Assembly: GCA_000231825.2 (NCBI GenBank)
Contig: JH720325.1
Location: 349,595-413,594, forward strand
DNA length: 64,000 bases
Source: Tetrahymena elliotti 4EA
Lineage: Eukaryota; Ciliophora; Oligohymenophorea; Hymenostomatida; Tetrahymenidae
Reading direction: 5' to 3'
Within the stretch, counting starts at the first letter, position 1; each line of letters opens with the position of its first letter. Position numbers and translations under genes: made by a program. Under the pieces are notes generated by a model. It had not been told where the DNA came from, did no database searches, and saw only the letters and a list, made by a program, of their open reading frames with translations. Below are positions 13,831-64,000 of this stretch, piece after piece.

Positions 13831-16800
13831 CTTCATTTTTTTATATGATCTTTTATATGTTTCTTATTTTAATATTTAGGTATTCAGGGTTACAGTCTTT
13901 GGAATTAATGTTTTTCACATTAATTTTTTAGAATAATTAATTTTTTTTCAAAGGTTGGTGAATTAAATTAAATCTTACCCCCTCCCTCCTTTATTTTTAG
14001 ATTACTCATTTATTAATTTAAAAAAAAGTTAAACAAATAAATCTTTTTCTAAAATAATTTAAACATTTAGTTTCTTTGATAGTGGATGAGATTAAGTTTA
14101 GCTTACAATGAAGGTTTAGTTTTGTAAAAAGATATTGCAACTTAGAGGCTTAACCATTTAATTTTTAATTTTTTTATGATAATTTAGATACAATTTTTTT
14201 ATAAAACATATTATCTTCATGAAAAAATGATTTTTATTTATTTCATTCTTAAAATTTGAACTTTACACACTTGGTTTTGTTTGTGCTCTTATCTAAATAG
14301 AAAATAAATTGCTTTTTAAAAAATAAGGTGAGGAATAGAGACATTGATTGGAAGCTAAAATTTTTACTCTGGATATACATACCTATTTAAGTTCGATTTA
14401 TACAGTTCCAAATACTTTAGTTTATGTTCCTAATAATATAATAAACCACTAACAAGTAAAATCAATTATGATGAAATAAAATATTCATTCACCAAATACT
14501 TTTGTACTATGAATAAACAAATTTATTGTTTTTGCCTCTTAACTATCAAAAAATCTTCATTATTATAATAGATTTGTTTTAGATATGAATATGTGAAACA
14601 ATTTTTTAAAGTTTTGAAATCTTAAGAAAATAGAAATTGTTTGAGCTAATATTAAAATAGGAAAAAATAATGAAAATCCTACTCATAATAATTATTGATC
14701 AATAGAAAAACATTTTTTATTTAATTAATTTTAAGTATTATTTTTGAAGAAAACTCAGAGATATTAATGAATCTGAGATTTGCTTTATTTTTTTTACAAT
14801 TTGAAAGAAATCTGTGATTTTCCTTTCTTAAAAATGTGAGATCAAATGACAATTAATATGAATTAAATTTAGTTATATTTATGTATGTAACAAAAATACT
14901 AATATCATTAAAATTGAGAGATCAAATTTTGTGTACATTAATTTTATTAAGAGGTAATATCATCTCACAAATTAATTTTATTTTGTTAGATATTTTTGGA
15001 AAAAATAAAAAATAAGACACATAATTCGAAAGAAAATATTTACTTTATTATTTGAGTAGTGAAGCTAATTCGAGAAAGCAATTTCAAATAAACATTTTCA
15101 AAGCTAATTAAATAATGTAATTTCTCGAATTTAGTTTCTTAGTCGATATAAAAAAAAGCACAGTTTTAATACTATTTTGCTTTGTAATATTTTTGAGTTT
15201 GTTGGAAATTAATTAAAAGTAAATCTGCATTTTTTATGTTATATATAGAAAATTTTTAGATATGAAAAATATTCCTTGTAATTAAGATTTATTGATTTAC
15301 TAAATTATCTCAAACATAAAGCCAAAGCAATTCATTATTAAATACATATAAGACAAGCGTAGACAATAAAAATGAGTTTATCCTCTTATTTAATATAATT
15401 TTTTGATACGAAAAAATACTCATATTAAATTGAACAAAATACTTTTATTTACACATCAAGCATAATTTGTAGAAAGAGAACATTTTAATTTCTATTTGTT
15501 TTTCATAGATAGGTTTAATTCTATTTGATCCTTTAAAAAAATTAATAAAGATATTATAAAAATAAAATGATCTCAACAGAAAATCAAATAAGAAAAAAAT
15601 TAGCTTAGCTTTTACTTTTTAATTTAAAAGATCATATTAATGATTGAAAAAGATTAATAAATATAAATATTTTAATGACAATGAAGTTACTTAAATTCTA
15701 ATAATTAAATAGTATGCAATATTATTGAGAATAATTAATTTTTTTAGATCGAATTTCGAATGGTTGTACATTTAATTTTTTTTTCAAAATAAATTAGAAT
15801 AACTGCTATTCCAAACTAAATTTTAGGGTTTTAATGAATTAAATCCTAAAAAAAATAATTGAATTAATAAAATTTGTTTGCTATTCATAATAATTTAATC
15901 TTTATTTTCCATTTTGTTTTATCATTTTTTTGCTTTATTGTATCCAAATTTCCGTCTGTTACAAGTTTATGAATTTTTCTTAATAAATGATAATTGCTTG
16001 TGGGTTATAATAATTTAGTAAAGTAAATAATCTAAAATTTATTTACTTGTTAATCAAAAAGAAGGAACAGGTAAGGTAATATTAAAAATCTTAAATTAAC
16101 TTTTGAAATTCGATAAGAATGAATTTCGTTTTTTTTATCCAAATATTAAGTCATTTGTTTTTCTTTAATTTAATCAATCGAAGATTACTAAGTACAATTA
16201 ATCCATATAAAGCAAAGATAAATACAAAATATTTTATAACTTATTTGAAATTTTTTATCCCTTGTGAATATCAAACTAAAAATAATCAATTAAAATTTTA
16301 TTTTTTAGTTGTAGACATTTATCCATTATGAATTAATTTTTTTAAAGAATTATTCGATCTCCTTTTTCATTAATTTTTTGTATTTGGTCTCAAGAGTCAA
16401 GAGGAAAAAGTGTTAAAATAGAAACTTTATCAAATTATTTGACATTAACTGAAATTTTTTGGGGTGAGGAACCAATTTTCCTTTCAAAATAAAATTGTAA
16501 TCTCAATAAGAATGACATATTTATTTATTCTTCATTTCACAAAATGAAACTACTTCATTTTTTATGAGAATGTGGGTCTATTTTAAAATAAATTATATTT
16601 TATTATATTTTTTTATAAAAAGAAACCAGGCAAAAAAACGCTTTTGTTTCTATCAGATATTTCAAAAATTCTTAAAAATATATTTATAAGATGCCCATTT
16701 CTTTAGATTAAGATTTTTTAAATGGGTAATTTATCAAAGACATAATGTTTCGATTCTTTAAATTCTGCTGAAAACCTCAAATTAAATTATAAAAAATTAC

Positions 16801-16839
16801 AAAACTAATTAAATTAATTAAATAAAATTATAAAAGAAA

Positions 16840-18554
16840 ATGATGAAAACTATCATTGTTGCTTTGCTCTTAGCAACTTCTCTTGTTGTAGCTTAATCTG
16901 ATGTATGCTATTAAAATTGTCCTGCTGGTACTATTAGTGCTTCCGGTAGTACTAAAGATACTTGTACTAAATGTGAAGCAGGTAAATACTCTGCTTCAGG
17001 AGATACTACTTGCTATGCATGCCCTCCTGGTAAATATTCAAGTGTTGCTGGAAGTGCTTAATGTACAGTATGTGCTGCTGGTACTTATTCTGCCTCTGGT
17101 GCTACTTCTTGCAATATTACCACTACAAAATGTGCTGCTGGTAAATACAGTTCAAACGGCTATGATACTAATGGCTCTGGTGCTGGTTGTTCTTCTTGCT
17201 AGGCTGGTACTTATTCTACAGAAGGATCTACTTAATGTACTCCATGTACTGCTGGATCTTGGTCTGCTTCTGGAGCTGGCTCTTGCAACCTTACCACTAC
17301 AAAATGTGTTGCTGGTTAATATAGTTCAAACGGCTATGATATTGATAACTCTGGTGGTGGCTGTGCTCCTTGTGATCCTGGTTTTTATTCGACAGTAGGA
17401 TCTACTTAATGTACTAAGTGTAACCTTGGTACTTGGTCTACTTCTGGATAAGCAAGTTGTGGTATTACTACAGCTCAATGTGCTGCNNNNNNNNNNNNNN
17501 NNNNNNNNNNNNNNNNNNNNNNNNNNNNNNNNNNNNNNNNNNNNNNNNNNNNNNNNNNNNNNNNNNNNNNNNNNNNNNNNNNNNNNNNNNNNNNNNNNNN
17601 NNNNNNNNNNNNNNNNNNNNNNNNNNNNNNNNNNNNNNNNNNNNNNNNNNNNNNNNNNNNNNNNNNNNNNNNNNNNNNNNNNNNNNNNNNNNNNNNNNNN
17701 NNNNNNNNNNNNNNNNNNNNNNNNNNNNNNNNNNNNNNNNNNNNNNNNNNNNNNNNNNNNNTGATGGATGTATTTCTTGTGATCCTGGTTTTTATTCTAC
17801 AGTAGGATCTACTTAATGTACTAAGTGTAACCTTGGTACTTGGTCTACTTCTGGATCAGCAAGTTGTAGTATTATTACAGCTCAATGTGCTGCTGGTAAA
17901 TACAGTTCAAACGGCTATGACACTAATGGTTCTGGTACTGGTTGTATTTCTTGCAGTGCTGGTACATATTCTGCTTAAGGAGCTACTTCTTGCACTAATT
18001 GCCCTGCTAATAAATGGACTAATGGTTCTGGATAATCTTCATGTACAGTAGATGTTACTCCTTGTGCAGCTGGTACATCCAGTATCACTGGATATACTAA
18101 TGAAACATGCAGTTCATGTAATGCTGGTTATTTCTCAGCTGCTGGAGCTAAATCATGCACTAGATGTACTGCTGGTACATATGCTGCCAATCCTGGGTCT
18201 ACTAGTTGTACCCCTTGCAGTCTTGGTACTACGTCATAATCTCCTTTTACTTCATGTTCTATTACTACTAGAAAATGCCCTGCTGGATTTAAAAGTACCA
18301 ACGGATATGATACTAATTAATATTGTGATGGCTGTACATTATGCGATGTTAATACCTATTCCACTACAGCAGGCTCAACAAGTTGCACTTCCTGCTAAAA
18401 TAGCCGTGTTGCACCTAAAGGATCTACAGCTATTACTGCTTGTGCTTGTCCTGCAAATACTTCAGGTCCTAATGACGGCACCAGTGAATGTAATTCATCT
18501 GCAATACTTATTAAATTCAGCTTAATCCTCTTAGGTTTAATTATTATTTTCTGA
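16840..18554 (+). CDS. Cys-rich GPI-type surface antigen, copy 2 (interrupted by assembly gap)
   Basis: Intronless surface antigen with signal peptide (residues 1-18, starting MMKTIIVALLLATSLVVA), a Cys-rich repeat body and a C-terminal GPI signal ('ILIKFSLILLGLIIIF') before TGA at 18552. The central part is a tandem repeat of exactly 174 nt (58 codons): the conserved 'tgtg' before each 'CxAGxYSSNGYD' (or equivalent) block falls at 17131, 17305 and 17479, then after the gap at 17886. The 275-N gap lies inside this repeat. The upstream frame (position 1 mod 3) and the downstream frame (0 mod 3) do not match across it, so the N count is not the true length. The C-terminal 70 residues closely match the gene at 8201-9535 (shared 'GPNDGTSEC'). 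Surface coat role as for its paralogue. Confidence 0.88.
17131..18060 (+). repeat. 58-codon tandem repeat inside surface antigen 2
   Basis: Units of 174 nt each encode a Cys-rich module: 'C(A/V)AG(K/Q)YSSNGYD', a Gly/Ser linker, then 'CxxC.(P/A)G.YST.GSTQC' and a Thr-rich spacer. Two exact periods (17131 to 17305 to 17479) are seen before the gap. The units flanking the gap share 'DPGFYSTVGSTQCTKC' unchanged, indicating recent duplication or gene conversion. Later units (from about 17930) diverge. Confidence 0.8.
17487..17761. other. Assembly gap (275 N)
   Basis: Run of N within the tandem repeat of the surface antigen gene. The repeat period of 174 nt predicts a true gap of 216 or 390 nt (two or three units between the 'tgtg' anchors at 17479 and 17886), not 275. 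Either corrected length also restores the reading frame. Confidence 0.95.
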
Positions 18555-19617
18555 AAATAAAATATTTCATTTATTATTGGAAATTAAAACTAAACTAACT
18601 TTAACTTTAAATGTTATGTATTTTATGTTTAGTATTATTTGGAAATAATAAAACTCTGATTTATCTATCCTTTTCTAACTAATTCAATTTAAATAATTAT
18701 TTTATTAAATCATTAGAAATTTTTGTGAACCAATTTTATTAATTAACTTATTACAACAAAAATTAAAAAATCATAATTTTTTCAGAGTAAAATAAATAAA
18801 TGAAGATGTCTTTTAAGTTAAATTTCTTTGTGAATTCATGAGCTACCCTTTATTTATCCTACTCAATTCAAAACTTTTTTAAATTTTAACAATAAAATAA
18901 TTATTATTTCAGAATAAAAATGCATTTAATTTATCTAAATTCTATAAATATTTGAAACTATTATTAATATAATCTGCTACTTTTTTTGTTTGGAGAAAAG
19001 ATAATAAATAGTTTTTCAATTAAGATCCTACTTTTTTTATTTCACTTAATATTTTTGTTTCTTTTGAAATTTATTTTTTTTAGAATAATAAATTAGCAGG
19101 TTTACTACTTTTACTTGCAAGATTGTAATTTAATCTTGTTAGATAAATGTTGAAAGATTTAAAATATTCAGAGAAAAATTTAAATATCAGAAAATTAAAA
19201 TAAATAAATTATCACAAAACTAATAGTTTTTGATCAATGTTTTTTCATTCATCAATTAAATAGCATAAATTTAAAAATGATTAATTATTCTGTAAAAAAT
19301 TTTTTGTTGGAAAATTGAAAAAATAATTCAAAGAATTAAGAAAATAAAACTTGATAAAAATAATTATTAAAGAGATGGATAGGAATAATACTGATTATAA
19401 TAATGCAAACATAAATATTTAAATATATTTATAATAGAAGGATAATTACATATAAATAATTATTAAAAGCAATATATCTTCTCTCTTAAGAACCCAATCA
19501 ATCCAATACAATTTTATGTTTGCTTTACTTTAAATTCTTACTTTGCAAAAATATTTTTAAGATAGTTTCTGTACTTTTTAAAAAAATCTAGCCTTTTTTG
19601 AATAGCACTTATCATTT
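18555..19617. other. Intergenic spacer
   Basis: Contains the antigen 3' UTR hairpin and otherwise AT-rich sequence with no supported exon. It should include the 3' ends of both flanking genes, which converge here. Confidence 0.6.
18633..18650 (+). promoter_or_regulatory. 3' UTR inverted repeat of surface antigen 2
   Basis: Exact copy of the 18-nt palindromic element TATTATTTGGAAATAATA, 78 nt after the stop. See the copy at 9608-9625. Surrounding UTR sequence is only loosely similar, so the exact match suggests selection or recent conversion. Confidence 0.55.
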
Positions 19618-21271: not shown

Positions 21272-22544
21272 TTCATTTCAATATATTTCTAATCTTTTAG
21301 TATTCATTTTTCATGCAAGTACACAAACAATCAAGCTAACAAGCAAATCAAACAATCAAGTAGTAGAGTATCTTTTTATTTTTTTTCATTATCAAGAATT
21401 TTAAGATTTACATAAACATTTAAATCCTATCTTTTAATATGAGCCCTAAATTAAATTTATAATAAAACTTTTCATCAAATTTATTTTTTTTAATTAAAAC
21501 TAAATATTTAAATATTTCATTTCTTCCTCAAATTTAAAATTTTTTGGATTTCTATTGATAAATAAAATTTTTCTACTTATTGAATGAAATATTATTTTAA
21601 ATTATAAAAAGATTATTGTTGATAAAAAAATAAAAAAGAATCAATACAAATATACAGAGATTCAATATATTTTCATTTTAATCAATTGGTATTTTAGATA
21701 GGATTTCTTTTAGACAAATTACTTGAGTGAACTAGTCGAATTTTAATAAATTTATGAAAATTGAAAACCAAACGGACTAACAAAATATGAAAATAACTTT
21801 CTAAATGAAATTTGTGTAAAATTTAAAAAAATAAACATTTTATTTTGCAAATAAATTGAAAAATAATCTGATTTCACTTTAAATAATATTTAAAATCATT
21901 ATTTTAGATTTTTTATAAAGGATTTTATTTTTTTGGAGTTTACAAGCTTAAGTATTAGTAAATAAAGGCTAATTACTTTTGGTATAAAAATTTTCAAAGG
22001 TTAATCTAATCTATTTTATATATTTTATATATTTTAAAGCACTTATAAAATAAAATGAAAATAGATGAATTTACTATTTCAATATTTTATTTGAGTGAAA
22101 TTAGAATTGAAAAATGTTTCAAACTTTGAAGAGATTAAAAAAATATTTATTCTTGCCTTTTATTAATTAAACATGTTTAATTTATTTTTACAAAAAAATA
22201 TCTTTTTTTTAGCATTTTTTAATCTTAATAGATTATCTATTTATTAATATTTTATTGTTGTGTTTAGATGTCATTTTTTTTACAATTTAGAGCAAATCAA
22301 ATTTTTTATCTATTTTAGATATTTAGTGAAATCAATTTATTTATCTTCTTAAATCTTTGTGGCTATAGATTTGTTAGGATTAATTATTTATTTAATCAAT
22401 AATTAACCTAAGTTTCAGGCAATTATAATTAACCTTACATTCTTCTCCTTTTGTAAATTTTAAAGGGCTCTAATTTAAAAATAGTGTTCACCTAGTTATT
22501 AAATAAATAATTAAATAAAAATATTCAATATAAATAAAAAAATA
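21272..22544. other. Divergent intergenic region
   Basis: Lies between the bL21m gene (minus) and the dipeptidase gene (plus), so it should contain two promoters back to back. The sequence is AT-rich with TATA-like strings everywhere, which makes none of them diagnostic. A short upstream ATG-AAA-TGA minus-strand micro-frame sits just before the bL21m start. No coding exon is seen. Confidence 0.6.
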
Positions 22545-24005
22545 ATGGAGTGTAGAAGAAAATTTGATAGAATTTTGAGTGAAAAAACACTTAAACTTGA
22601 ACTCCCTATGTCTTTCCATAAAAAGGTAAGACAGACTCTAATAGATGCTATGAGAAAGAATGGGAATATAAAAGAAAGATCTATTGTTTTACTTAAAGGT
22701 GACACTATTAAATTCATGCATGATCAAGATATAGTTGAGGAATTCTAATAAGAAGCAAATATCTTCTATCTATTTGGTGTTAGAGAGTATGATTGCCATG
22801 GTGTCTTAGAATTAGATACAGGTAAGGCCTTTCTATTTTGTAGTAAAATCCCTGATGAGTTGAAGGTATGGATAACTGTAAAGGAACCTCCTTTCTTTAA
22901 GCAATAATATCAAGTCGATGATGCTTGGTTTGATACTGAAATGGAAAATTATTTAAAACAAAAAAATCCTGAAGAAATTCATATTTATCATGGCATCGAT
23001 TCAGACAGCGGTTTGATTCTTCCTGAACCTACTTTCGATTACTTAAAGAATTACACAGTCATCAAAGATAAGCTCTATAATATCCTGAACGAACTGAGAG
23101 TTATCAAGCACCCTGAAGAAATAGAATAAATGAAGTTTATTGGTAAGATTTCATCTGATGCTCATATAAGAGTCATGAACAATATAAAAGCTGGAATGAT
23201 GGAATACTAAATGGAAGCTTTGTACAAGTTTCATGTTCATGAATTGGTGGGTTCAAAAGAAAAATCTTATAATTGTATCTGTGCTTCTGGAGAAGCACCT
23301 GCTCTCCTTCACTACATCAACAATGAAAAAGAAATACCTTATAACTCTCTAATACTGAACGATATGGGTTCTAAATATAATGGATATACTTCTGATATAA
23401 CAATTACTTTCCCCTCTAATGGAAAATTCAACTAAAAATAAAAAGAAATTTATAATGCAGTTTACGAAGCTTACACAACAATTCTAAGTAAGGTAAAATC
23501 AGGAGTTTCTTGGGAAGAAATGCATTTTTTGGCAGAGAGAATAATATTGCAACATTTGATTAAATTAGGCTTGGTAGTTGATGTCCCAATTCAAGAATTA
23601 ATTGAAAAAAGAGTTTCAGCTATGTTTTTCCCTCATGGATTAGGTCACTTTATGGGTTTAAGAGTTCATGATGTAGGTGGATACAACCCTGGTCATCCTC
23701 CTAAACTAAAAGATGTAGCAGGATTAAGGAGTCTTAGAACAAGAAGAATTTTACAAGAAGGTATGTGTATTTCAGTTGAACCTGGATGCTATTTCAATAA
23801 ATCTCTATTACACCTTGCATTCAATCATCCAGTCATATCAAAATACCTAATAAAAGAAAAAATAAATGAGTATCTAGAAGTTTCAGGCGTTCGTTTAGAA
23901 GATAATATCCTTATTACTAAGGATGGATACATCAATTTCACAGAAGTACCTAGAACTATTGAGGAAGTTGAAAGAGCTTGTGTAGGATTACCCTGGAAAG
24001 AGTGA
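22545..24005 (+). CDS. PEPD: Xaa-Pro dipeptidase (prolidase), peptidase M24
   Basis: Single exon of 486 residues, close to the 493 of human prolidase, ending at TGA. It cleaves dipeptides with C-terminal proline or hydroxyproline, in the cytosol, using two metal ions. The AMP_N domain spans roughly residues 10-150 and the pita-bread catalytic domain about 185-470. All five metal ligands are present: D273 (in 'NDMGSKYNGY'), D284 ('SDITITFP'), H368 (in 'HGLGHFMGLRVHDVGGY', with H364 just before), E412 ('ISVEPGCYF') and E452 ('VRLEDNILIT'). No signal peptide. About ten in-frame TAA/TAG codons are read as Gln. The gene is divergently oriented from bL21m and followed by an unknown gene on the same strand 1.1 kb away. 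Functional assignment is strong because spacing and ligands match the eukaryotic PEPD subfamily rather than methionine aminopeptidase. Confidence 0.93.
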
Positions 24006-26739: not shown

Positions 26740-28269
26740 TCAAATTTCAAATTAGTAAAGGAAATTCTTCTTTTTGTATTCTAAAATATTACTGGTGAGT
26801 TCTTCAAATTAAGTTACTACATTATCCATTTTAATTTGTTCAAAAGTTTAGGGTCTACTTTAACTTTCATAAATAAAGTACTCCACAAGTTTGTTAATCA
26901 TTAAGTAGAAGTTACAAACCTCTCTTACTTTAAGTATATCCTCACGAAGTTGTTACAATTCAAAAGGAATGAAGAAAGCCATGTCTACGAAATTGCCATG
27001 GCCAAATTCTTTAAGCTCAGCTGCTAAAATAGCATTTTTATAAACTCTTTATGACTTGATGAAGGTTTGTATATGGTCTCTTTGACTAAAGAATGGGAAT
27101 CTCTTATGGAAATTTTCACTACAAAGGATGAGGAAAGGCTTCTTTTGGGGAGTGCTAAGTAATTTTTAGAATTTAGGGTCTTCATCGAATAAACTCATAG
27201 CAGGATCTAAAACTATAGTTGTAAAAATTCTTGGATCATCAAGAGAAGCAGCAATAGAAGTTAAGCCACCATATGAATGTCCACACATAATAATTTACTC
27301 TCTTGCTGAGAATGACTCTTTCAATTCATCTCCATTCGGGAAATAATTTAAAAACTTCTTTGAAGGATCAAGAGCAAAGGTAATTATTTTTTAGATATCT
27401 TCTTTTCTCTTGATAACTGATTCATTCATGACTTCTTTAAAACTGTTAAGTGGTACAGGATATTGCTTGATTTTAGCAATAAAATCTTCATCACGATGCA
27501 TAGGAGCAATAACTATAACTCCTTTTGAAGCTAAATCTTTACAAAAAGTGGCTTAGAGATTCATATGAGAATTAAATCCATGTGAGTACATCATAATTGG
27601 ATATTTATTTTTCAAAACAGCTAAATTAGCATTGGCAATAACATCCATCATTTGGTTTCTTAATAAAGGACCTAAACTAATTTTAAGAAGAGCAGCTGGA
27701 ACATGATCAACCTTGAATTCTCTTGGGTATCTGTATGTCAAATAAGCTAAAGTATCTAAGTATTTATTCACATTAGAAAAGTAGGGTACATTTCTTCTAT
27801 GGCTATAGTCATCTTCAGTTGGATAAAATATAGCAAATTAAATGTCATCTATGTTTTTAACTGTATAGCCAACTTTAAGAGATCCTGTGACAGGTATTTG
27901 CATAAAAATGGGATTTATCATCATTAAAACAAAATGAACAATAATCATAGCTGTAATAAAAGCCATACAAATATGGTCAATTGTTGTGTTTGCAATAATT
28001 TTCCAATTGTTTGATTAATCATACCTGTAAAATTGCAGAACAAATTCTAATAAAATGGCATAAATAGTTGGCAATCTTATACCCTCTTTTTTAATTATCA
28101 TTATCAAGAATAATACCAAAACTATTTCACTCTAAATTGAATACTCTAAAACCTAATTTAATATCCATTTGCTTTGTAATCTGAAACTTAGTGAAGACAT
28201 AGACAACAAAAAGCCTACGTTTCTTAAACCTAATCCAATTTCAAATGGTCTTAACTACCTTTTTTCCAT
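26740..28269 (-). CDS. Membrane-anchored PAF-acetylhydrolase-like serine esterase
   Basis: Single exon, 509 residues (MEKRQLRPFEIGLGLRNVGF...). The C-terminal two thirds is an alpha/beta hydrolase of the platelet-activating-factor acetylhydrolase / Lp-PLA2 type. The nucleophile elbow is 'GHSYGG' with S332. D355 in 'TIVLDPAMS' lies 23 residues later, the same spacing as in human plasma PAF-AH. H424 is in 'FGHGNFVDM', which resembles the family 'HxNF.DF' box. The upstream 'YPIMMYSHGFNSH' segment is the oxyanion-hole strand. The expected reaction is hydrolysis of short or oxidised sn-2 acyl chains of phospholipids. Unlike the secreted human enzyme it has about 100 N-terminal residues with two or three hydrophobic segments ('EIVLVLFLIMIIKK', 'IYAILLEFVLQFY', 'AFITAMIIVHFVLMMI'), suggesting membrane anchoring. 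Several internal Met codons near the start leave the precise N-terminus uncertain. Confidence 0.85.
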
Positions 28270-36455: not shown

Positions 36456-39400
36456 ATGAACTAAGGAAATAGCAAGATTTAAGTAGTTTTAAGAAAACGG
36501 CCTCTTTTATAAAAGGAAATAGAAAAAGGTAATGGAGCAGAAGTAGTAGAAGTAGTTAATAGGTAGCAAATAAACTTACTTGATCCTGATGAAATTAATT
36601 AGAGATATAATCTTCAATATAATGTCAACAAGAATAGATTTAAAGAAACACACTTCACATTTGACAATGCCTTTGATTAAAATGCAAATAATTATCAAAT
36701 TTATCAAGAAGTAGGAGAGCAGTATTTAAATGATATATTAGATGGGTTTAATACTACCATTTTTGCATATGGTGCTACTGGAGCAGGAAAAACATATACG
36801 TGATTATTTATTTAATTACTTAATTCACAAATTGAAATATTTACTTTAGCGAAGCAAAAACAAAAAATAAGCATTGAGTAAATAAAATGGAAAAGAGGAA
36901 TAAACATTAAATGATAAATGATTCAAATATATTTTTTGCAGAATTTTTAGAAACCTTTTAATTTATTTATTTTATTAATCAATAAACAGGATGGTAGGAT
37001 CTAAAGATATGCCTGGGTTAATGGACATGATGCTAGATGGATTATTTTAAAAAGTAAAATAAAAAGAAGTAACTCATGATGTAACTATAAAGATAGCTTA
37101 TATGGAAATATATAATGAAAATCTTAAGGATTTGATTTCAACTGAATAGAAGAATCTTGAGTTGAGAGAGGACCCAAAATCAGATGTTACCTTAATCCAT
37201 GTATTATTTTAAATTATGATTTCTTGCTTATTAATGAATTGTTATTTTATTTTAAGAGGGTGTATTAATTAATTATTAAATCGGGATTAATAGATAATCA
37301 ATAACAAGTTAATAATCCTTACTAAATCAATCACACTTTCAGTGAATTATCTTTCAAAACCAGTGTTTCAAATGCTAATTTTCTCTCCAATCAAAATAAA
37401 ATCAAAAATAATAAATATTCATCACATTTTTCGTATTAAATTCAACAGTATTTAGCTTATCCCCTTTTATTTTTCTAATGACTACAAAATATCTTAACAA
37501 AATAATAAATTATAGGGTTTAACTGAAATAGAAGTTACTGATTCATAATCAGTTGCTAATATTCTCAAAATAGGAGCTAAAAATAGATCCAAAGATTCCA
37601 CTGTATCTAATGAAGCATCTAGCAGATCTCATGCAATTTTATAAATTTCAATAGAATCATTAGATAGAGCTGAAGGCTTAGAAAAAGAAATGATAGTTTC
37701 TAAACTTTCTTTAGTTGATTTAGCAGGTTCAGAAAGAGCTTGGTCCAATAAGAGTAAAGTCTCAAAACTAGAAGGAGCTAAAATAAACTAGTCTTTATTA
37801 ACTTTAGGAAATTGTATCCAAGCACTTAGTGAGTAAAGTGAAAAAGGCCCTTAAAAAAATAATTTTATCCCTTATCGTGGATCTAAGCTAACAAGATTAT
37901 TAAAAGTAAACAATTCTTTAAATTTACTAAATAAATAAGTAAATACCCAAAATTTCTTTGTTAAATTAAATGGTACATACCTGTCCAAAAATTTTGCTTA
38001 AAAATAAAAAAAATAATTCTCGAAAGTCCGTCAAATACAATAACCTCAGACTAAAAATAGCTATAGTATTTTAAAATTATAAAACATAAATTTTTTTAGA
38101 AAACATTTAAAATAAATTAAACTAAATAAAATAGTTTCAAAAATGATTGAAAAGGGATTTTTTAGCCAATAAAATTTAGAAATTTTAAATTCTTCTTGCA
38201 TTTGAAAAAGAGCAATTATTTTAGCAAAAAAAAACAATTCATCTAATTTCATTATTAGATATAAATAAGATGATAGTTTTCCAAATTAATTTTAAGATTA
38301 TAGTAATTAAGACACTCACAATTCAAAATCTATCATCTATTTAAACACAAATTAAAAAAAAATAGAGTTTTAATATTTATTCACAAAAATTTTTTGATAT
38401 CTTTTATCTAAAATTTTAATCTTACATGGAGAAAATAATTTTTATCAATTTTGATGGGTTTTTGAATAAATTTCATCATTTTGATGCAAACAGACATAAG
38501 CAAATTGCTTTTAATGAATCACAGCTAAAATAAATCTTATATTGCTTTGGAAAGTTAACTAATTGCATCAAGCTAATAAAATAGTTTCAAAAACATAGAA
38601 AAGAAATAAATTGTGAAGGCATTTTTATGATAATAATATTTACAAATTATTACGCAAAAAATATAAAAACAAATAAATTATTTAATTAAAGGATAATACT
38701 GTTTTAAAGAGCGATTTTTAATTATTCTAAGCTCTATTTATTAATATTTTTTAATCATAAAGTTAATATAAAGTTATTAATAATGCAAATAATACTAAAT
38801 ATTATTTTTGATACCTTTTTTGAATAAAACCCCATTATAAAAATAAAGATGAGGTATTAACTTTTAGATCAATGATAACCAAAATAAATTTTTAAAGATT
38901 TCGTTACAATTATTCATTTTTGAAACTTAAATTTATTAAATTTTTAAAAATACTTGATTTGCTAGAAAATGAAATGAGATAATAACTCGAAATCAGAATA
39001 ATTTGGTTTTTTGGAATAGATTAAAGCTATACTTTCAAAATCTTAATTTTTAAAATTTGATTTCTCAAAATTTGTTAAAAATCCTAAGAAGTCAAAGTAA
39101 AATTTTGCAGATACAATACAACTAACAAGAGCATTTTGGAGTATATAAATTTTCTAACTCACTCGAATTTAATTAAATTTATGTTTTGATAAATACTTAC
39201 CAAATTTACCTATATTACACTTATATCAGGATTCATTGGGTGGAAATTGTAGGACTATAATGATAGCGAATATATCAGGCAGCATCCTAAGCTTTGAAGA
39301 TACTTACAACACACTTTAGTATGCTAGCAGAGCAAAGAATATTCAAGTCCATGTCCATAAAAATGTAATATAGTCAAGTAATCATGTTTCTAATTATGCA

Positions 39401-44036: not shown

Positions 44037-44120
44037 CCGAACTTAGCTCAGTTGGAAGAGCATCGGACTGTAAAGTTTGTAGTCATCCGGTGGTCCCCGG
44101 TTCGAACCCGGGAGTTCGGA
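44037..44120 (+). tRNA. tRNA-Tyr (GUA) with 11-nt intron
   Basis: Complete cloverleaf. The acceptor stem CCGAACT pairs with AGTTCGG and the discriminator is A44120. The D arm GCTC..GAGC is present. The anticodon stem TCGGA pairs with TCCGG, and the T arm CCCGG-TTCGAAC-CCGGG is perfect with internal box B. The anticodon GTA is at 44070-44072. Between the loop CTGTAA(A) and the 3' anticodon-stem strand lie 11 extra bases (about AGTTTGTAGTC), at the canonical 37/38 intron position as in most eukaryotic tRNA-Tyr genes. A T8 run (44121-44128) directly follows and serves as pol III terminator. Confidence 0.95.
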
Positions 44121-58974: not shown

Positions 58975-61416
58975 TAATATTTTTTTTTATTTTTGATAAA
59001 AATAGCAACAAATAAAAAGTTTTTCAGATAACATCCTTGTGAAATCTGTATATAATTTACGAATATATAAAAGAATAACATATATTTGGTCATAAACACA
59101 TCATGCATATTTCGTTTGCACTAAAAAAAGTACTTTCTACTAGTCAATTATTATAAAAATTTATACATGCTATTATCTATTTTAATTGAAATGTTAGTAA
59201 TAGTAAATAATTTACTTAAATAGATGAATTTTACATTGTGGCTTTTTCTCCCTCTTGAGTGAAATATTTATGATTGTCTATTTTACTGGCTTTATTCAGA
59301 TTGTTTTTTGCATTTTTAATTTATTTTTGTAGAAATCAAAGCAGAATGACTGATAATTTCTTAATAAAAGAACCAAATTTTTTAAAAAACACACAAATAT
59401 TTTGCAAATCTTCAAATAAATTTTGACATTTCTCTTACTTAAACGATTCTCATACAAATCAATAAATATTCAGCTCAAGAGAAATTAGTTCAATAATATT
59501 TAACTAATAAATTTAAATAAAAAACTTCCACTTGAATTTATTTTTTATTTGATGCTTACTTTTCTAGAATATTTCTCTCTGTAACTCTTAATATTTTTTG
59601 CCCAACAATTTTATATTTTTATCTAAAAATTGATGCTTAACTTGGTAAATCATGTTAAGTTGATTACAAAAAAAAGAATAGAGAAATAATTTGACATTTT
59701 TGATTGCAAAAGAATTAGTTTGTAAATAAAGTAAAGTAGACGGATTTAGGCAAAAGTGATTATCTTTAAAACTTCTGGAAGAATTTAAAACCCAATTGAA
59801 AAGAATCTACTAAATCTAATTCAACAAAATCAATTCTAATATAATTAGGAATACTATTTTTTCACTAAATGAAATATTTTTACAAAGAATAAATACCAGA
59901 TGCATTTTAGTCCTTTTAATCAAAAATTAAAAATTTGAAGTAGAGAAATAATTTATCAAAAGTCAGTCACAAAAATCTTGATTTACAATCAGCTTGACGT
60001 AAAATTAATCCATTGCCTCCTATTTGATGATCAATAATAACAAAAATCTAAATTGTTTGATTAAGCTTAAAAAAATCAGATGATTATAAAAATTTTTCTT
60101 ATGTTTTGTCTATTTTTTATAATTTATACTTTAGAAATCTGATTGTATTATGTCAAAAGAAATTTATAAATTATAAATCATTACAACATTTTCTTATTAA
60201 ATCAACCTTACACCAAAATAAAACTTAATGTAAAAACAAGTTAGAATAATCTAGCAAAACAAATACACAAAAATTTGATTTTTTAAATGATTTTAATGCT
60301 TCTCAATTTATTAAATTTAATAATTGCTATGTTTTCTTGAAAGAATATTAATCAGAATAATAATAAATAGTTTTTTTTGAGATCATGTCAACAAATTCTT
60401 TTAAAAGGAATCAATCAAATGAATATATTATAATTTATTCAATATAAAGTTCCCTAAAATATAATAACAATTGGTCAACTGTAATTCAGAAATTTAAGTC
60501 CAGTTATTTATAATATATCTAGCAATAGATGCTTTTGAATTAATTTATTTGATAAAAACTTTTAGTATGCAGCTATATCTTAATGAAAGAATTGAAAATT
60601 TGTTACTTGTTATGAGAATTATAATATCAAATAATTATCTGAACCTTTACGTCATTCCAAATGTAAATAGTTTGTTATCAGATTCTATTATGTTTTTGAC
60701 AAAAAAATTAAATTCAAAAAATACAAATTAAAACCTGTTTTTGTAAGAATTTCCAATTATTTTTTTTACATTTAAAAACTATTTTCTATCCAATGTAAAG
60801 CAATTTGCCAATCTGATTTTTTTCCCTCTAAAAATTTTAATTCAAAGCAATCATTTAATTACATTGAAATTATCATTATTTTCGAAAAGACTGTTTTGTT
60901 CTAAACTCATGGCAAGAAAATATTTTTAGAGGAATCTCAAAAACTGTAAAAAATAATTTGCAAAAAGGAATGAAAAAAATAAATTTATTAATGAAAAAAT
61001 TGGTCTTTTACTTTAATAATTAATTATTAGAAGAGTATTAAGTTACCTTTATTTTCAAAAGTTTTTGTAAAAAAAAGTTTGATTTCAAACAGAAGATTAA
61101 TAATTAATTAATACGCATAATACAAATTGGTGAATTGCATAAGACGAAATGTAGTTAATTATATGACCTTTATACAAATTTTCGAATATTTTTTTTCTAG
61201 TTGGGTAATTAAATATTCATTTTGATAATTTTATGATTTTTGCTATTTAAAATAATATAAATAAAAAGAATAAGGAGGGTATTAAATTTAATTTATTTAG
61301 GAAATAATTTGAAAGAAATAATTGATTGGTTTTATTCTTGTGTTTTAGACATGTATATTAATTTGTGCTCGTTCCTCCCTTTTACTAACTCAAAAATTTT
61401 AAAGAGACAAAATTAG

Positions 61417-64000
61417 ATGAATAAAATTTTGTAAAATGATCTTTAAAAAAGTGAATCTAAATTTTCATATAATTAATTAATTCTTATTTTTCTTTAAAAA
61501 TTTTAAAATTTGAAAAAAATAATGTTGAAAAAAAATAGAAAAATTATTTCAAATCTAACTGAAGTATTTCAATTTCTTTTCAGATATAAATGCATTTTAA
61601 TTTTTATCTATTTAAAGTTACTTAGCTCTAATTTAACTTCTTACTTAAATCTTCATATTGATCTCAGGTAAAGTTATTAATTTTTCATTAAAGCAATCAA
61701 ATCTTTAAACTCTGATTTTTAACCTTATAAATAATGTTTAATAATAAATTATGCATTTAGTAATAAAATGATTGAATTTGGTTAATTTTTTATTTGTTTT
61801 TTTCATTTTTAATTCAAATTTTGGTTTTTTTTTTGCTTTTTAAATATTTCTTTATTCAATATTTATTTTTATCAACTTTTAAAAGGTATGATAAAATTGG
61901 TAAAATGGAAGCAGAAAAATTAGGATCTCATATAGCAAAATGCTCTTATCTCTAAACTTTGGTTCTTTAAATTGGGTAAAAATAGTGTTTCAATATTAAT
62001 TTTTATTGGATGAATAAATAAGATTTTAATTTATGAGGGATAACTAATTAATTAATTTAGGTTTGAGCTTGATATTAGTTTGGCTTACTCATTCATTAAT
62101 TTTGATTTTTTTGTTTTAATTTTTAATTCAAATACATTTTTCAAAAGGTTTAAGAATATTGGTGAAACGAGTGCATAAAAATTAGTATCTGAGTTAGCAA
62201 AATGCTCTAATCTCTAAACCTTGACACTTGACCTTAAGTAAAAAAATTGTTTCAATATTAATTATTATTTTGAATGAATAAATAAGATTTTTATTTCTCA
62301 TGGGTTTTTCATTGACTGACTAATAATTAATTTAGGTTGGTGAATTAATTTTTATTTATTATTTAGTATTTTTAATTTTAATTTTATTTCAAATTTTTGT
62401 TTTATTTTCTCCAATTTTAATATTTTTTTTTAATTTTATTTATTATCAATTTTTAAAAGGTCTAATAATATTGGTGAAAAAGGTGGAAAAAAATTAGGAT
62501 CTGAGTTAGCCAAATGCTCAAATCTCTAGACTTTAACTCTTGATCTTAGGTAAAAATAGTTATTAATTATTATTTTAGAATTCATAAATATGATTTGAAT
62601 TTATGAGGGGTTGACTGACTAACAAACTAATTTAGGTTGGAGAACTTGATATTAGTTTGGCTTACTCATTTATTTGTTTTTTTCATTTTTAATTCATATT
62701 TTTGTTTTTTAAATATCGCTTTATTCAATATTTATTTTTATCAATTTTTAAAAGTAAGAATAATATTGGTGAGTTGGGTGTATAAAAATTAGAATCTGAG
62801 TTAGCAAAATGCTCTAATCTCTAAACTTTGACTCTTGACCTCTAGTAAAAATAGTTTTTCAATATTAATAATGCTTTTTGAATCAATAATAGGTACAACT
62901 GACTCATTAACTAATTAATTTAAGTTGGTTAATTTGATATTAGTTCGGTTTACTCATTCATTAATATTTATTTGTTGTTTTCCTTTTTAAATCAAATTTT
63001 TGGTTTTTTCTCCTTTTTAAATATTTCTTTATCCAATATTTATTTTTATATAGTAATATTGGTGAAATGGGTGCATAAAAATTAGGATCTGAATTAGTAA
63101 AATGCTCTAATCTCTAAACTTTGACTCTTTACCTCTAGTATAAATAGTTTTTCAATATTAATAAGGCATTTGGGAAAAAATTAGTTTGTCTTACTCTCTC
63201 ATTAATTTTTATTTATTGTTTTTATTTTAATTCAAATTTTTGTTTTTTTAAATATTGCTTTATTCAAAATTTACTTTTATCAATTTTTAAAAGATAAAAT
63301 AATATTGGTGAGTTGGGTGTATAAAAATTAGGATCTGAGTTAGTAAAATGCTCTACTATTTAAACTTTGGCTCTTTACCTTAAGTAAAAATGCTGTTTTT
63401 ATATTAATTATGCATTTTGGAACATATTAGTTTGACTTACTTACTTACTCATTCATTAATATTTTTTTGTTGTTTTCATTTTTAAATCAAATCTTTAGTT
63501 TTTTTCTCCTTTTTTAAATAGTTCTTTATCCAATATTTATTTTTATAAAGTTGGAATGGTATTGGTGAAATAGGTGGATAAAAATTAGGATCAGAGTTAG
63601 CAAAATGCTTTAATCTCTAAACTTTAACTCTTGACCTTGGGTAAATATATTATTTCAATATTAATTATTATTTTAGAATTAATAAATAAGATTTGAATTT
63701 ATGAGGGATTAAATAATTAATTTTTTTTTATTGATTTTTATTGTGTTTTTTCTTGTTTTTTATTCATTAATTTTTATTATTATTTTTATTTTTCATCCAA
63801 ATTTTTGTTTTTTTAAATATAGCTCTATTCAATATTTTTTTTATCAATTTTTAAAAGCTAGAATAATATTGGTGGCTTGGGTGCATACAAATTAGGATCT
63901 GAGTTAGCATAATGCTCTAATCTCTAAAATTTGACTCTTGGCCTAACGTAAAAATAGTGTTTCAATATTAATTCTGTGTTTTGGAATATATTAGTTTGAC
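61417..64000 (+). CDS. Leucine-rich-repeat protein, one LRR per exon (5' part; runs off window)
   Basis: Exons: 61417 (or 61522)-61667, 61886-61975, 62148-62237, 62460-62549, 62755-62844, 63054-63137, 63294-63383, 63551-63640 and 63858-63947, then off the edge. Each of the last eight encodes one ribonuclease-inhibitor-type LRR with consensus 'NIGE.GAQKLGSEL' + '(A/V)KCSNLQTLTLDL'. Every exon begins with one base completing a codon and ends with two bases of the next. They are 90 nt (84 at 63054), so any exon can be lost or gained without a frameshift. Donors are GTAAAA/GTAAAT/GTATAA, and most acceptors are 'TTTTAAAAG'. The first exon reads from ATG 61417 (MNKILQNDLQKSESKFSYNQ) or 61522 (MLKKNRKIISNLTEVFQ) into 'LLSSNLTSYLNLHIDL', a degenerate LRR. 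The gene may also start further upstream. LRR solenoids usually bind proteins; the partner is unknown. Confidence 0.85.
61886..64000 (+). repeat. Tandem array of exon-intron LRR units (8 copies, 246-312 bp period)
   Basis: The 'tgct(c/t)' inside the conserved 'AKC' codons lies at 61941, 62203, 62515, 62810, 63103, 63349, 63606 and 63913, giving periods of 262, 312, 295, 293, 246, 257 and 307 bp. Introns are also repeated: most contain 'tttggcttactcattcat' or a variant, then 'tttaattcaaatttttg', 'tattcaatatttattttta' and 'tcaatttttaaaag'. The duplicated unit is therefore exon plus intron. Length variation is in the introns. The array continues past the window end. Confidence 0.9.

What the first reader, a model, noticed from the sequence alone, without database searches (positions are those of the whole stretch)
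61417..64000. One-repeat-per-exon LRR gene built by tandem exon-intron duplication, all introns in one phase
Seen directly: eight consecutive exons of 90 nt (one of 84) each encode a single LRR, all start with 1 nt and end with 2 nt of a split codon, and the introns themselves are recognisable copies. Such symmetric exons can be duplicated, deleted, shuffled or skipped without frameshift, so the gene is a ready substrate for rapid repeat-number change and alternative repeat choice. Inference: this could be a fast-evolving recognition-type LRR family. I recall that Tetrahymena has expanded LRR genes with about 90-bp exons, so the exon form may not be new, but this locus deserves study.
Basis: partly seen in the sequence, partly recalled or inferred. 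Interest (0 to 1): 0.9.

Follow-up and report, generated by a model that had tools for sequence, protein, structure and literature searches.

The report
Tetrahymena 90-base-exon leucine-rich-repeat gene
This is the front part of an ordinary member of a very large, already described family of ciliate genes in which every leucine-rich repeat sits on its own 90-base exon; the one fresh detail is that the residues varying most lie at the splice junctions.

Summary
Eight consecutive exons (seven of 90 nt, one of 84) each encode one leucine-rich repeat; introns are phase 2 and diverged copies of each other; frames are open under the ciliate code. Two corrections: the conserved start codon is 61522, not 61417, and the window stops inside the gene, at 1,101 N; the 18.8 kb searched beyond holds no further unit. 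The genome is Tetrahymena-like and holds 1,294 matches (up to 3 mismatches) to the exon core, 0 for the reversed pattern. Xiong et al. 2019 (PMC6564038) described this architecture in ten Tetrahymena species: exactly 90-bp exons, phase 2 introns, leucines at six fixed positions; all three match. Brown-algal ROCO genes are a parallel case. Not found in the parts of Xiong that I saw: a site-level result. The three most variable of 30 positions are the two residues flanking the intron and the split-codon residue; one of them, residue 1, shows a diversifying-selection signal stronger than any of 50 control triplets in that direction. Verdict: real, a new member of a known kind; recognition function and fast turnover here are not shown.

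The parts
61522..61667 (+). Exon 1 (146 nt): N-terminal cap, conserved start codon, ends with 2 nt of a split codon
   Evidence: ATG in 17 of 20 aligned 5' ends incl. window, 1 of the others N; donor GTAAAG; window frame open
61668..61885 (+). Intron 1, phase 2, 218 nt, similar to the later introns
61886..61975 (+). LRR exon 1, 90 nt
62148..62237 (+). LRR exon 2, 90 nt
62460..62549 (+). LRR exon 3, 90 nt
62755..62844 (+). LRR exon 4, 90 nt
63054..63137 (+). LRR exon 5, 84 nt (6 nt shorter at its 5' end; frame kept)
63294..63383 (+). LRR exon 6, 90 nt
63551..63640 (+). LRR exon 7, 90 nt
63858..63947 (+). LRR exon 8, 90 nt; last one before the N run that begins right after the window
   Evidence: N run
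63948..64000 (+). Start of the next intron (GTAAAAAT...), cut by the window end

Best explanation
This is the 5' part of an LRR gene of a Tetrahymena species (presumably in its macronuclear genome), of the kind Xiong et al.-bp-exon array genes, most likely their young group III. Shown by sequence: an N-terminal exon, then one LRR per 90-nt exon, phase 2 introns that are diverged copies of each other, and many paralogs with different unit numbers (for example 7 in L029 and 12 in L030 before a closing exon). Inferred from paralogs: the lost 3' end is one more short exon that closes the LRR stack (KAKRLV-like motif, then stop). Inferred mechanism: unequal crossing-over or other ectopic exchange in the germline between units of one or several arrays, breaking in introns, adds, removes or swaps whole repeats without frameshift. 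The product is a small, apparently all-LRR protein (horseshoe) that binds some partner through its concave face. Purifying selection holds the leucine scaffold while residues next to the splice junction vary freely or diversify. The partner (bacterial, dietary or internal) is unknown.
For: Exon and intron anatomy. Of 207 strong units (over 40 bits) in the window and 19 of the 20 stretches fetched (L017 had none), 175 are exactly 90 nt and open; 143 introns between them have median 212 nt, range 91-449. The six leucine positions given by Xiong (codon centres at nt 36, 48, 66, 75, 81, 87) equal codons 12, 16, 22, 25, 27, 29, which are Leu in 165, 167, 161, 167, 170 and 159 of 175. 629 + 665 = 1,294 exon-core matches in the genome, control 0. 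A KAKRLV-like closing exon was found after 6 of 21 arrays (L012, L019, L022, L023, L029, L030); one more row (L013-) gave a loose chance match and 14, the window among them, gave none within 900 nt. Pfam LRR_6 E 1.3e-11; the only other family over its cut-off is HalOD2, probably spurious. 19 PDB sequences match at E up to 0.001, many named as LRR proteins, RanGAP or ciliary proteins. Ciliate telomerase RNA in the genome; a neighbour protein is 93% identical to a T. thermophila SB210 protein over 80% of its length.
Against: The gene is incomplete, so its length, end and intactness are unknown. No RNA evidence. 32 of 207 strong units were not scored as exactly 90 nt and open (a simple splice finder, so partly its own failures and cut units, and the 84-nt window exon is one of them), and 8 of 18 readable paralog first exons are frameshifted or lack the start, so part of the family looks decayed and the window copy could be too. 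In exon 1 the third codon position is not the most divergent (0.234, 0.158, 0.194), so coding constraint there is weak. Within loci, exon similarity does not track similarity of the following intron beyond permutation (r 0.146; 500 permutations mean 0.123, maximum 0.284). For the window alone, on a gap-ignoring measure, r is 0.46 (p 0.016) with the following and 0.31 (p 0.085) with the preceding intron. Clean whole-unit duplication is therefore barely traceable now.
Confidence: 0.92

Rival explanations
1. Decaying pseudogene or dead fragment of the family: the array is a relic, not translated.
For: 32 of 207 strong units were not scored as exactly 90 nt and open; 8 of 18 readable paralog first exons are broken; the window gene runs into an N run; one exon is 84 nt; weak codon-position signal in exon 1.
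Against: All 9 exons found in the window are open and bounded by AG/GT (exon 1: donor only); 0 TGA in 230 LRR codons; the one length change keeps frame; exon length is nearly fixed while the window introns range over 156-222 nt.
Confidence: 0.15
2. Self-propagating repeat: exon-intron units spread with a non-LTR element (REP) and the coding frame is a by-product.
For: Over a thousand unit cores genome-wide; Xiong reports that REP elements lie next to such units in the T. thermophila germline.
Against: Fitted overall omega 0.52-0.54 and strong constraint at several leucine codons, for example 27 and 29. No element was sought here.
Confidence: 0.06
3. Annotation illusion: an unspliced ORF or chance AG/GT pairs in AT-rich DNA.
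For: Part of the 5' end is open without splicing (ORF 61351-62013).
Against: Same exon frame and edges in 175 units of the window and its paralogs; chance hits elsewhere in the window are few and unlike the repeat.
Confidence: 0.01

Closest known systems
Tetrahymena 90-bp-exon LRR genes, group III (Xiong et al. 2019, PMC6564038; I read the abstract, sections 9, 10, 11, 25, 27, part 1 of section 15, and found passages)
   Same: Exactly 90-nt exons in tandem, phase 2 introns, six fixed leucines, long introns that are themselves copies, variable unit number, exons scrambled between genes
   Different: Median intron here 212 nt against about 257 (T. thermophila) and 232 (T. malaccensis); one unit of 84 nt; species of the window not named by any tool; site-level selection not described in the parts I saw
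Brown-algal LRR-ROCO genes (Teng et al. 2024, PMC11378527, passages only; Zambounis et al. 2012 seen only as cited there)
   Same: One LRR per exon, all phase 2, exon shuffling, diversifying sites on the concave face
   Different: 72-bp exons, LRR attached to a ROC-COR GTPase domain; here 90 nt and no such domain in the part seen
Ribonuclease-inhibitor-like LRR proteins (PDB sequence matches: 5irm, listed as 'Uncharacterized protein' and recalled to be NOD2; RanGAP 1yrg, 1k5d)
   Same: LxLxLxxNxI strand motif and long repeat; significant sequence match
   Different: 30-residue repeat fixed by the exon; no other domain seen

Membership tests
[quoted passage not shown]
   Runs of 4 and 3 exact 90-nt exons separated by one of 84 nt
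[quoted passage not shown]
   All 8 introns between the 9 exons found: 1 nt + 2 nt split codons
[quoted passage not shown]
   Codons 12, 16, 22, 25, 27, 29 are Leu in 91-97% of 175 exons (positions)
Group III (young) subset | Units similar at nucleotide level within and between genes, long introns | tested here: met
   118 DNA matches at E up to 0.001 in the genome, the window itself included, 40 of 652 candidates scored; median intron 212 nt
Group III (young) subset | Masked by a RepeatModeler consensus of the species | not tested
   No repeat library available
Group III (young) subset | Near REP elements, pericentromeric or subtelomeric in the germline nucleus | not testable with these tools
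   Only one assembly held, presumably macronuclear
Group III (young) subset | Expressed, intact open reading frame | tested here: inconclusive
   Open as far as seen; 3' end not seen, N run; no RNA data
Brown-algal LRR-ROCO | 72-bp phase 2 LRR exons followed by ROC-COR | tested here: not met
   Exons are 90 nt; no ROC-COR in the 286 residues scanned; what lies in the N run was not seen
Ribonuclease-inhibitor-like LRR subfamily | 28-29-residue repeats with LxxLxLxx(N/C)xL (recalled) | tested here: inconclusive
   Pfam LRR_6 and matches to 5irm and RanGAP, but repeat is 30 residues

The most novel reading that the evidence does not exclude
The phase 2 intron cuts through the ligand-binding patch itself: residue 28, the split-codon residue and residue 1 of the next exon are the three most variable of 30 positions, and at least residue 1 appears to be under diversifying selection. 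Every exchange inside an intron would then not only change repeat number but re-pair half-patches from different units and recode the junction residue, making the 90-nt exon a combinatorial unit of recognition, convergent with brown-algal ROCO genes.
Probability: 0.3. Interest if true: 0.55.

Novelty: new member of a known kind. Interest (0 to 1): 0.22.

Why it matters
As a locus it adds one more gene to a family of thousands. What could matter is that the site pattern makes Xiong's open question, whether these genes are recognition proteins, testable from sequence: if the junction-flanking residues are under diversifying selection in several species while the scaffold is constrained, the case for a recognition repertoire in a single-celled grazer becomes stronger and parallels brown algae.

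Tried and rejected
Start at 61417 (reader): rejected, not conserved. An intron between about 61451 and 61583 with a small exon after it: rejected, 10 of 18 readable paralogs keep one open 146-nt exon through it. Recent block duplication of window units 4-5 into 6-7, suggested by shared acceptor forms: not supported by unit identities. More LRR units to the right of the N run: none in the 18.8 kb searched. Counting methods for dN/dS were ambiguous: pN/pS 1.11 at codons 1 and 28, 1.28 at codon 26 alone, 0.61 in the rest, 0.72 overall; tree count 1.28 for codons 1, 26, 28 against 0.62 for the rest. I therefore fitted codon models; the first fit had a badly started optimiser and was replaced. Controls for the per-site test: of 20 intron triplets one exceeded omega 1 with LRT 17-18; of 30 wrong-frame triplets, which are not neutral, 8 did so with LRT up to 19. 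So codon 28 (LRT 8-15 over) is not beyond controls; codon 1 (LRT 27-48) is; codon 26 shows nothing. The junction codon came out with omega 0.3-0.6 and a very high synonymous rate in the per-site test, although the class model put it in the class above 1; its third base belongs to the next unit, so I trust neither. Species naming: not possible. The protein search with the LRR product returned 6 distant hits, so it adds little.

Full report
What is there. The right end of the window holds eight exons of 90 nt (one of 84), each coding one leucine-rich repeat, with AG/GT borders and phase 2 introns. In frame there is no TGA in 230 codons under the ciliate code, while the other frames have 4 and 17. 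Introns are 156-222 nt, GC 0.12-0.20, against exon GC 0.28-0.37. They match over 63% of alignment columns, against 52-53% for shuffled or unrelated AT-rich sequence; whole units over 68%. So the introns are diverged copies, less similar than the exons.

Corrections to the finding. Alignment of the 5' end with 19 paralogous 5' ends puts the conserved start at 61522 (ATG in 17 of 20 rows including the window; of the other three one is N), with exon 1 at 61522-61667; ATG at 61417 occurs in 2 of 20. The window stops 53 nt after the last exon, where a run of 1,101 N begins. No unit occurs in the 18.8 kb to its right, and the one loose match to the closing-exon motif there is on the other strand and unlike it, so the 3' end most likely lies in the N run, which may be an assembly gap or a withheld stretch. 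Of the 20 stretches fetched, 9 contain an N run of at least 100.

The family. The DNA of the array has 118 matches in its own genome at E up to 0.001, itself included, and a degenerate exon core (up to 3 mismatches) has 1,294 matches against 0 for the reversed control. An HMM over the window and the fetched stretches gives 207 strong units, of which 175 are exactly 90 nt and open; median intron 212 nt (n = 143); donors GTAAAA in 111 and acceptors AAAAG in 94 of 143. A KAKRLV-like closing exon was found after 6 of 21 arrays (L012, L019, L022, L023, L029, L030). L030 looks complete: exon 1, twelve 90-nt exons, closing exon, all open. Not all is healthy: 32 of 207 strong units were not scored as exactly 90 nt and open, and 8 of 18 readable paralog first exons are broken.

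Identity. The genome has ciliate telomerase RNA, and a neighbouring Xaa-Pro dipeptidase is 93% identical to a T. thermophila SB210 protein over 80% of the query, so it is a Tetrahymena or very close. The same gene form was published in 2019 for ten Tetrahymena species: exactly 90-bp exons, more than 98% of the introns before them phase 2, six leucines at fixed exon positions, long introns in the youngest group, scrambled exons among paralogs, and a proposed mechanism of unequal crossing-over possibly with a retroelement (PMC6564038, read in part). The leucine positions coincide with those here. Four searches of the open-licence library for this gene form returned this as the only relevant paper (one search listed two others, judged by title and abstract start only).

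How it likely works. The protein is LRR only, as far as seen (Pfam LRR_6; PDB sequence matches include 5irm, recalled to be NOD2, RanGAP and ciliary proteins); the N-terminal exon is moderately hydrophobic (best 19-residue Kyte-Doolittle mean 1.50), not a clear membrane segment. Exons of one array are more alike than exons of different arrays (0.775 against 0.741), and 84 of 175 have their nearest relative in the same array, 8.5 expected by permutation. That fits duplication within arrays plus exchange between them, or old age. In the window array itself no pair of units is recent (best unit pair 76%), and exon and following-intron similarity are not linked within loci beyond permutation.

Site pattern. 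The most variable of 30 positions are residue 1 (3.83 bits, 175 exons), the split-codon residue (3.75, 143 junctions), residue 28 (3.39) and residue 26 (2.30); the next is residue 7 (2.24). By standard LRR geometry (recalled) these four are the outward positions of the strand LxLxLxxN, that is, the concave face. In 35 disjoint close exon pairs their first and second codon positions differ at 0.296, against 0.214 at the third positions of the same codons, 0.086 (first and second) and 0.124 (third) at the other codons, and 0.21 in 50 nt of intron on either side (the difference from the third positions of the same codons is 0.082, bootstrap interval 0.011-0.157). The third positions of these codons are raised too, so part of the excess may be local rate. 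The intron baseline is compressed by AT-rich composition and by alignment: random unit pairs give only 0.26-0.27. At the strictest threshold (12 pairs) the excess over introns is no longer clear (P 0.13-0.14). With a free synonymous rate per site, codon 1 has LRT 30 and 44, codon 28 10 and 15, and the junction omega 0.28 and 0.60, that is, not above 1. In a rerun with controls codon 1 (27 and 48) exceeds every control triplet with omega above 1 (20 intron, 30 wrong-frame; maximum 19); a wrong-frame triplet with LRT 31 points the other way (omega 0.24). Codon 28 (8 and 14) does not exceed the controls, and codon 26 shows no excess. So diversifying selection is fairly supported at one position, suggested at a second, not established at the junction, absent at 26. 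The same kind of result, four concave sites, is published for brown-algal ROCO genes with 72-bp phase 2 LRR exons (PMC11378527, passages). In the main text of Xiong 'solvent' and 'positive selection' have 0 occurrences; it reports gene-level Ka/Ks below 1 (purifying), and sequence logos in its supplement, which I did not see, may show the variable positions.

Verdict. Interest 0.22; the splice-junction site pattern is the part worth a proper test.

Noticed in passing
window 44037-44120 (+): tRNA-Tyr(GTA) with an 11-nt intron in the anticodon loop; the plain scan called it tRNA-???. Ordinary.
   Followed up: yes
window 22173-24005 (+): Xaa-Pro dipeptidase (M24) ORF of 610 codons; 93% identical to a T. 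thermophila protein over 80% of its length, but the listed T. malaccensis hit is only 65% identical, so there may be two paralogs; the first 137 or so residues match no solved relative.
   Followed up: partly
window 17487-17761: Run of 275 N inside the ORF 16564-19233, whose first 299 residues match NCD3G and ephrin-receptor-like cysteine-rich families.
   Followed up: no
window 36991-38205 (+): Part of a kinesin motor gene.
   Followed up: no
window 26740-28269 (-): Platelet-activating factor acetylhydrolase-like ORF.
   Followed up: no
L013 (G000:C17:861500-870000): Two LRR arrays converging on opposite strands within 8.5 kb, the + strand one with lower-scoring, more diverged units.
   Followed up: no
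L012, L014, L015, L016, L021, L023, L024, L028, L030: 9 of 20 fetched array stretches contain N runs of at least 100 in or beside the array, as at the window end: unit numbers and gene ends from this assembly are unreliable.
   Followed up: partly
window 63054-63137 and 63551-63640: Exons 5 and 7 both lack the usual acceptor stretch ending TTTTTAAAAG and use TATATAG or TATAAAG instead, a possible shared derived acceptor.
   Followed up: partly
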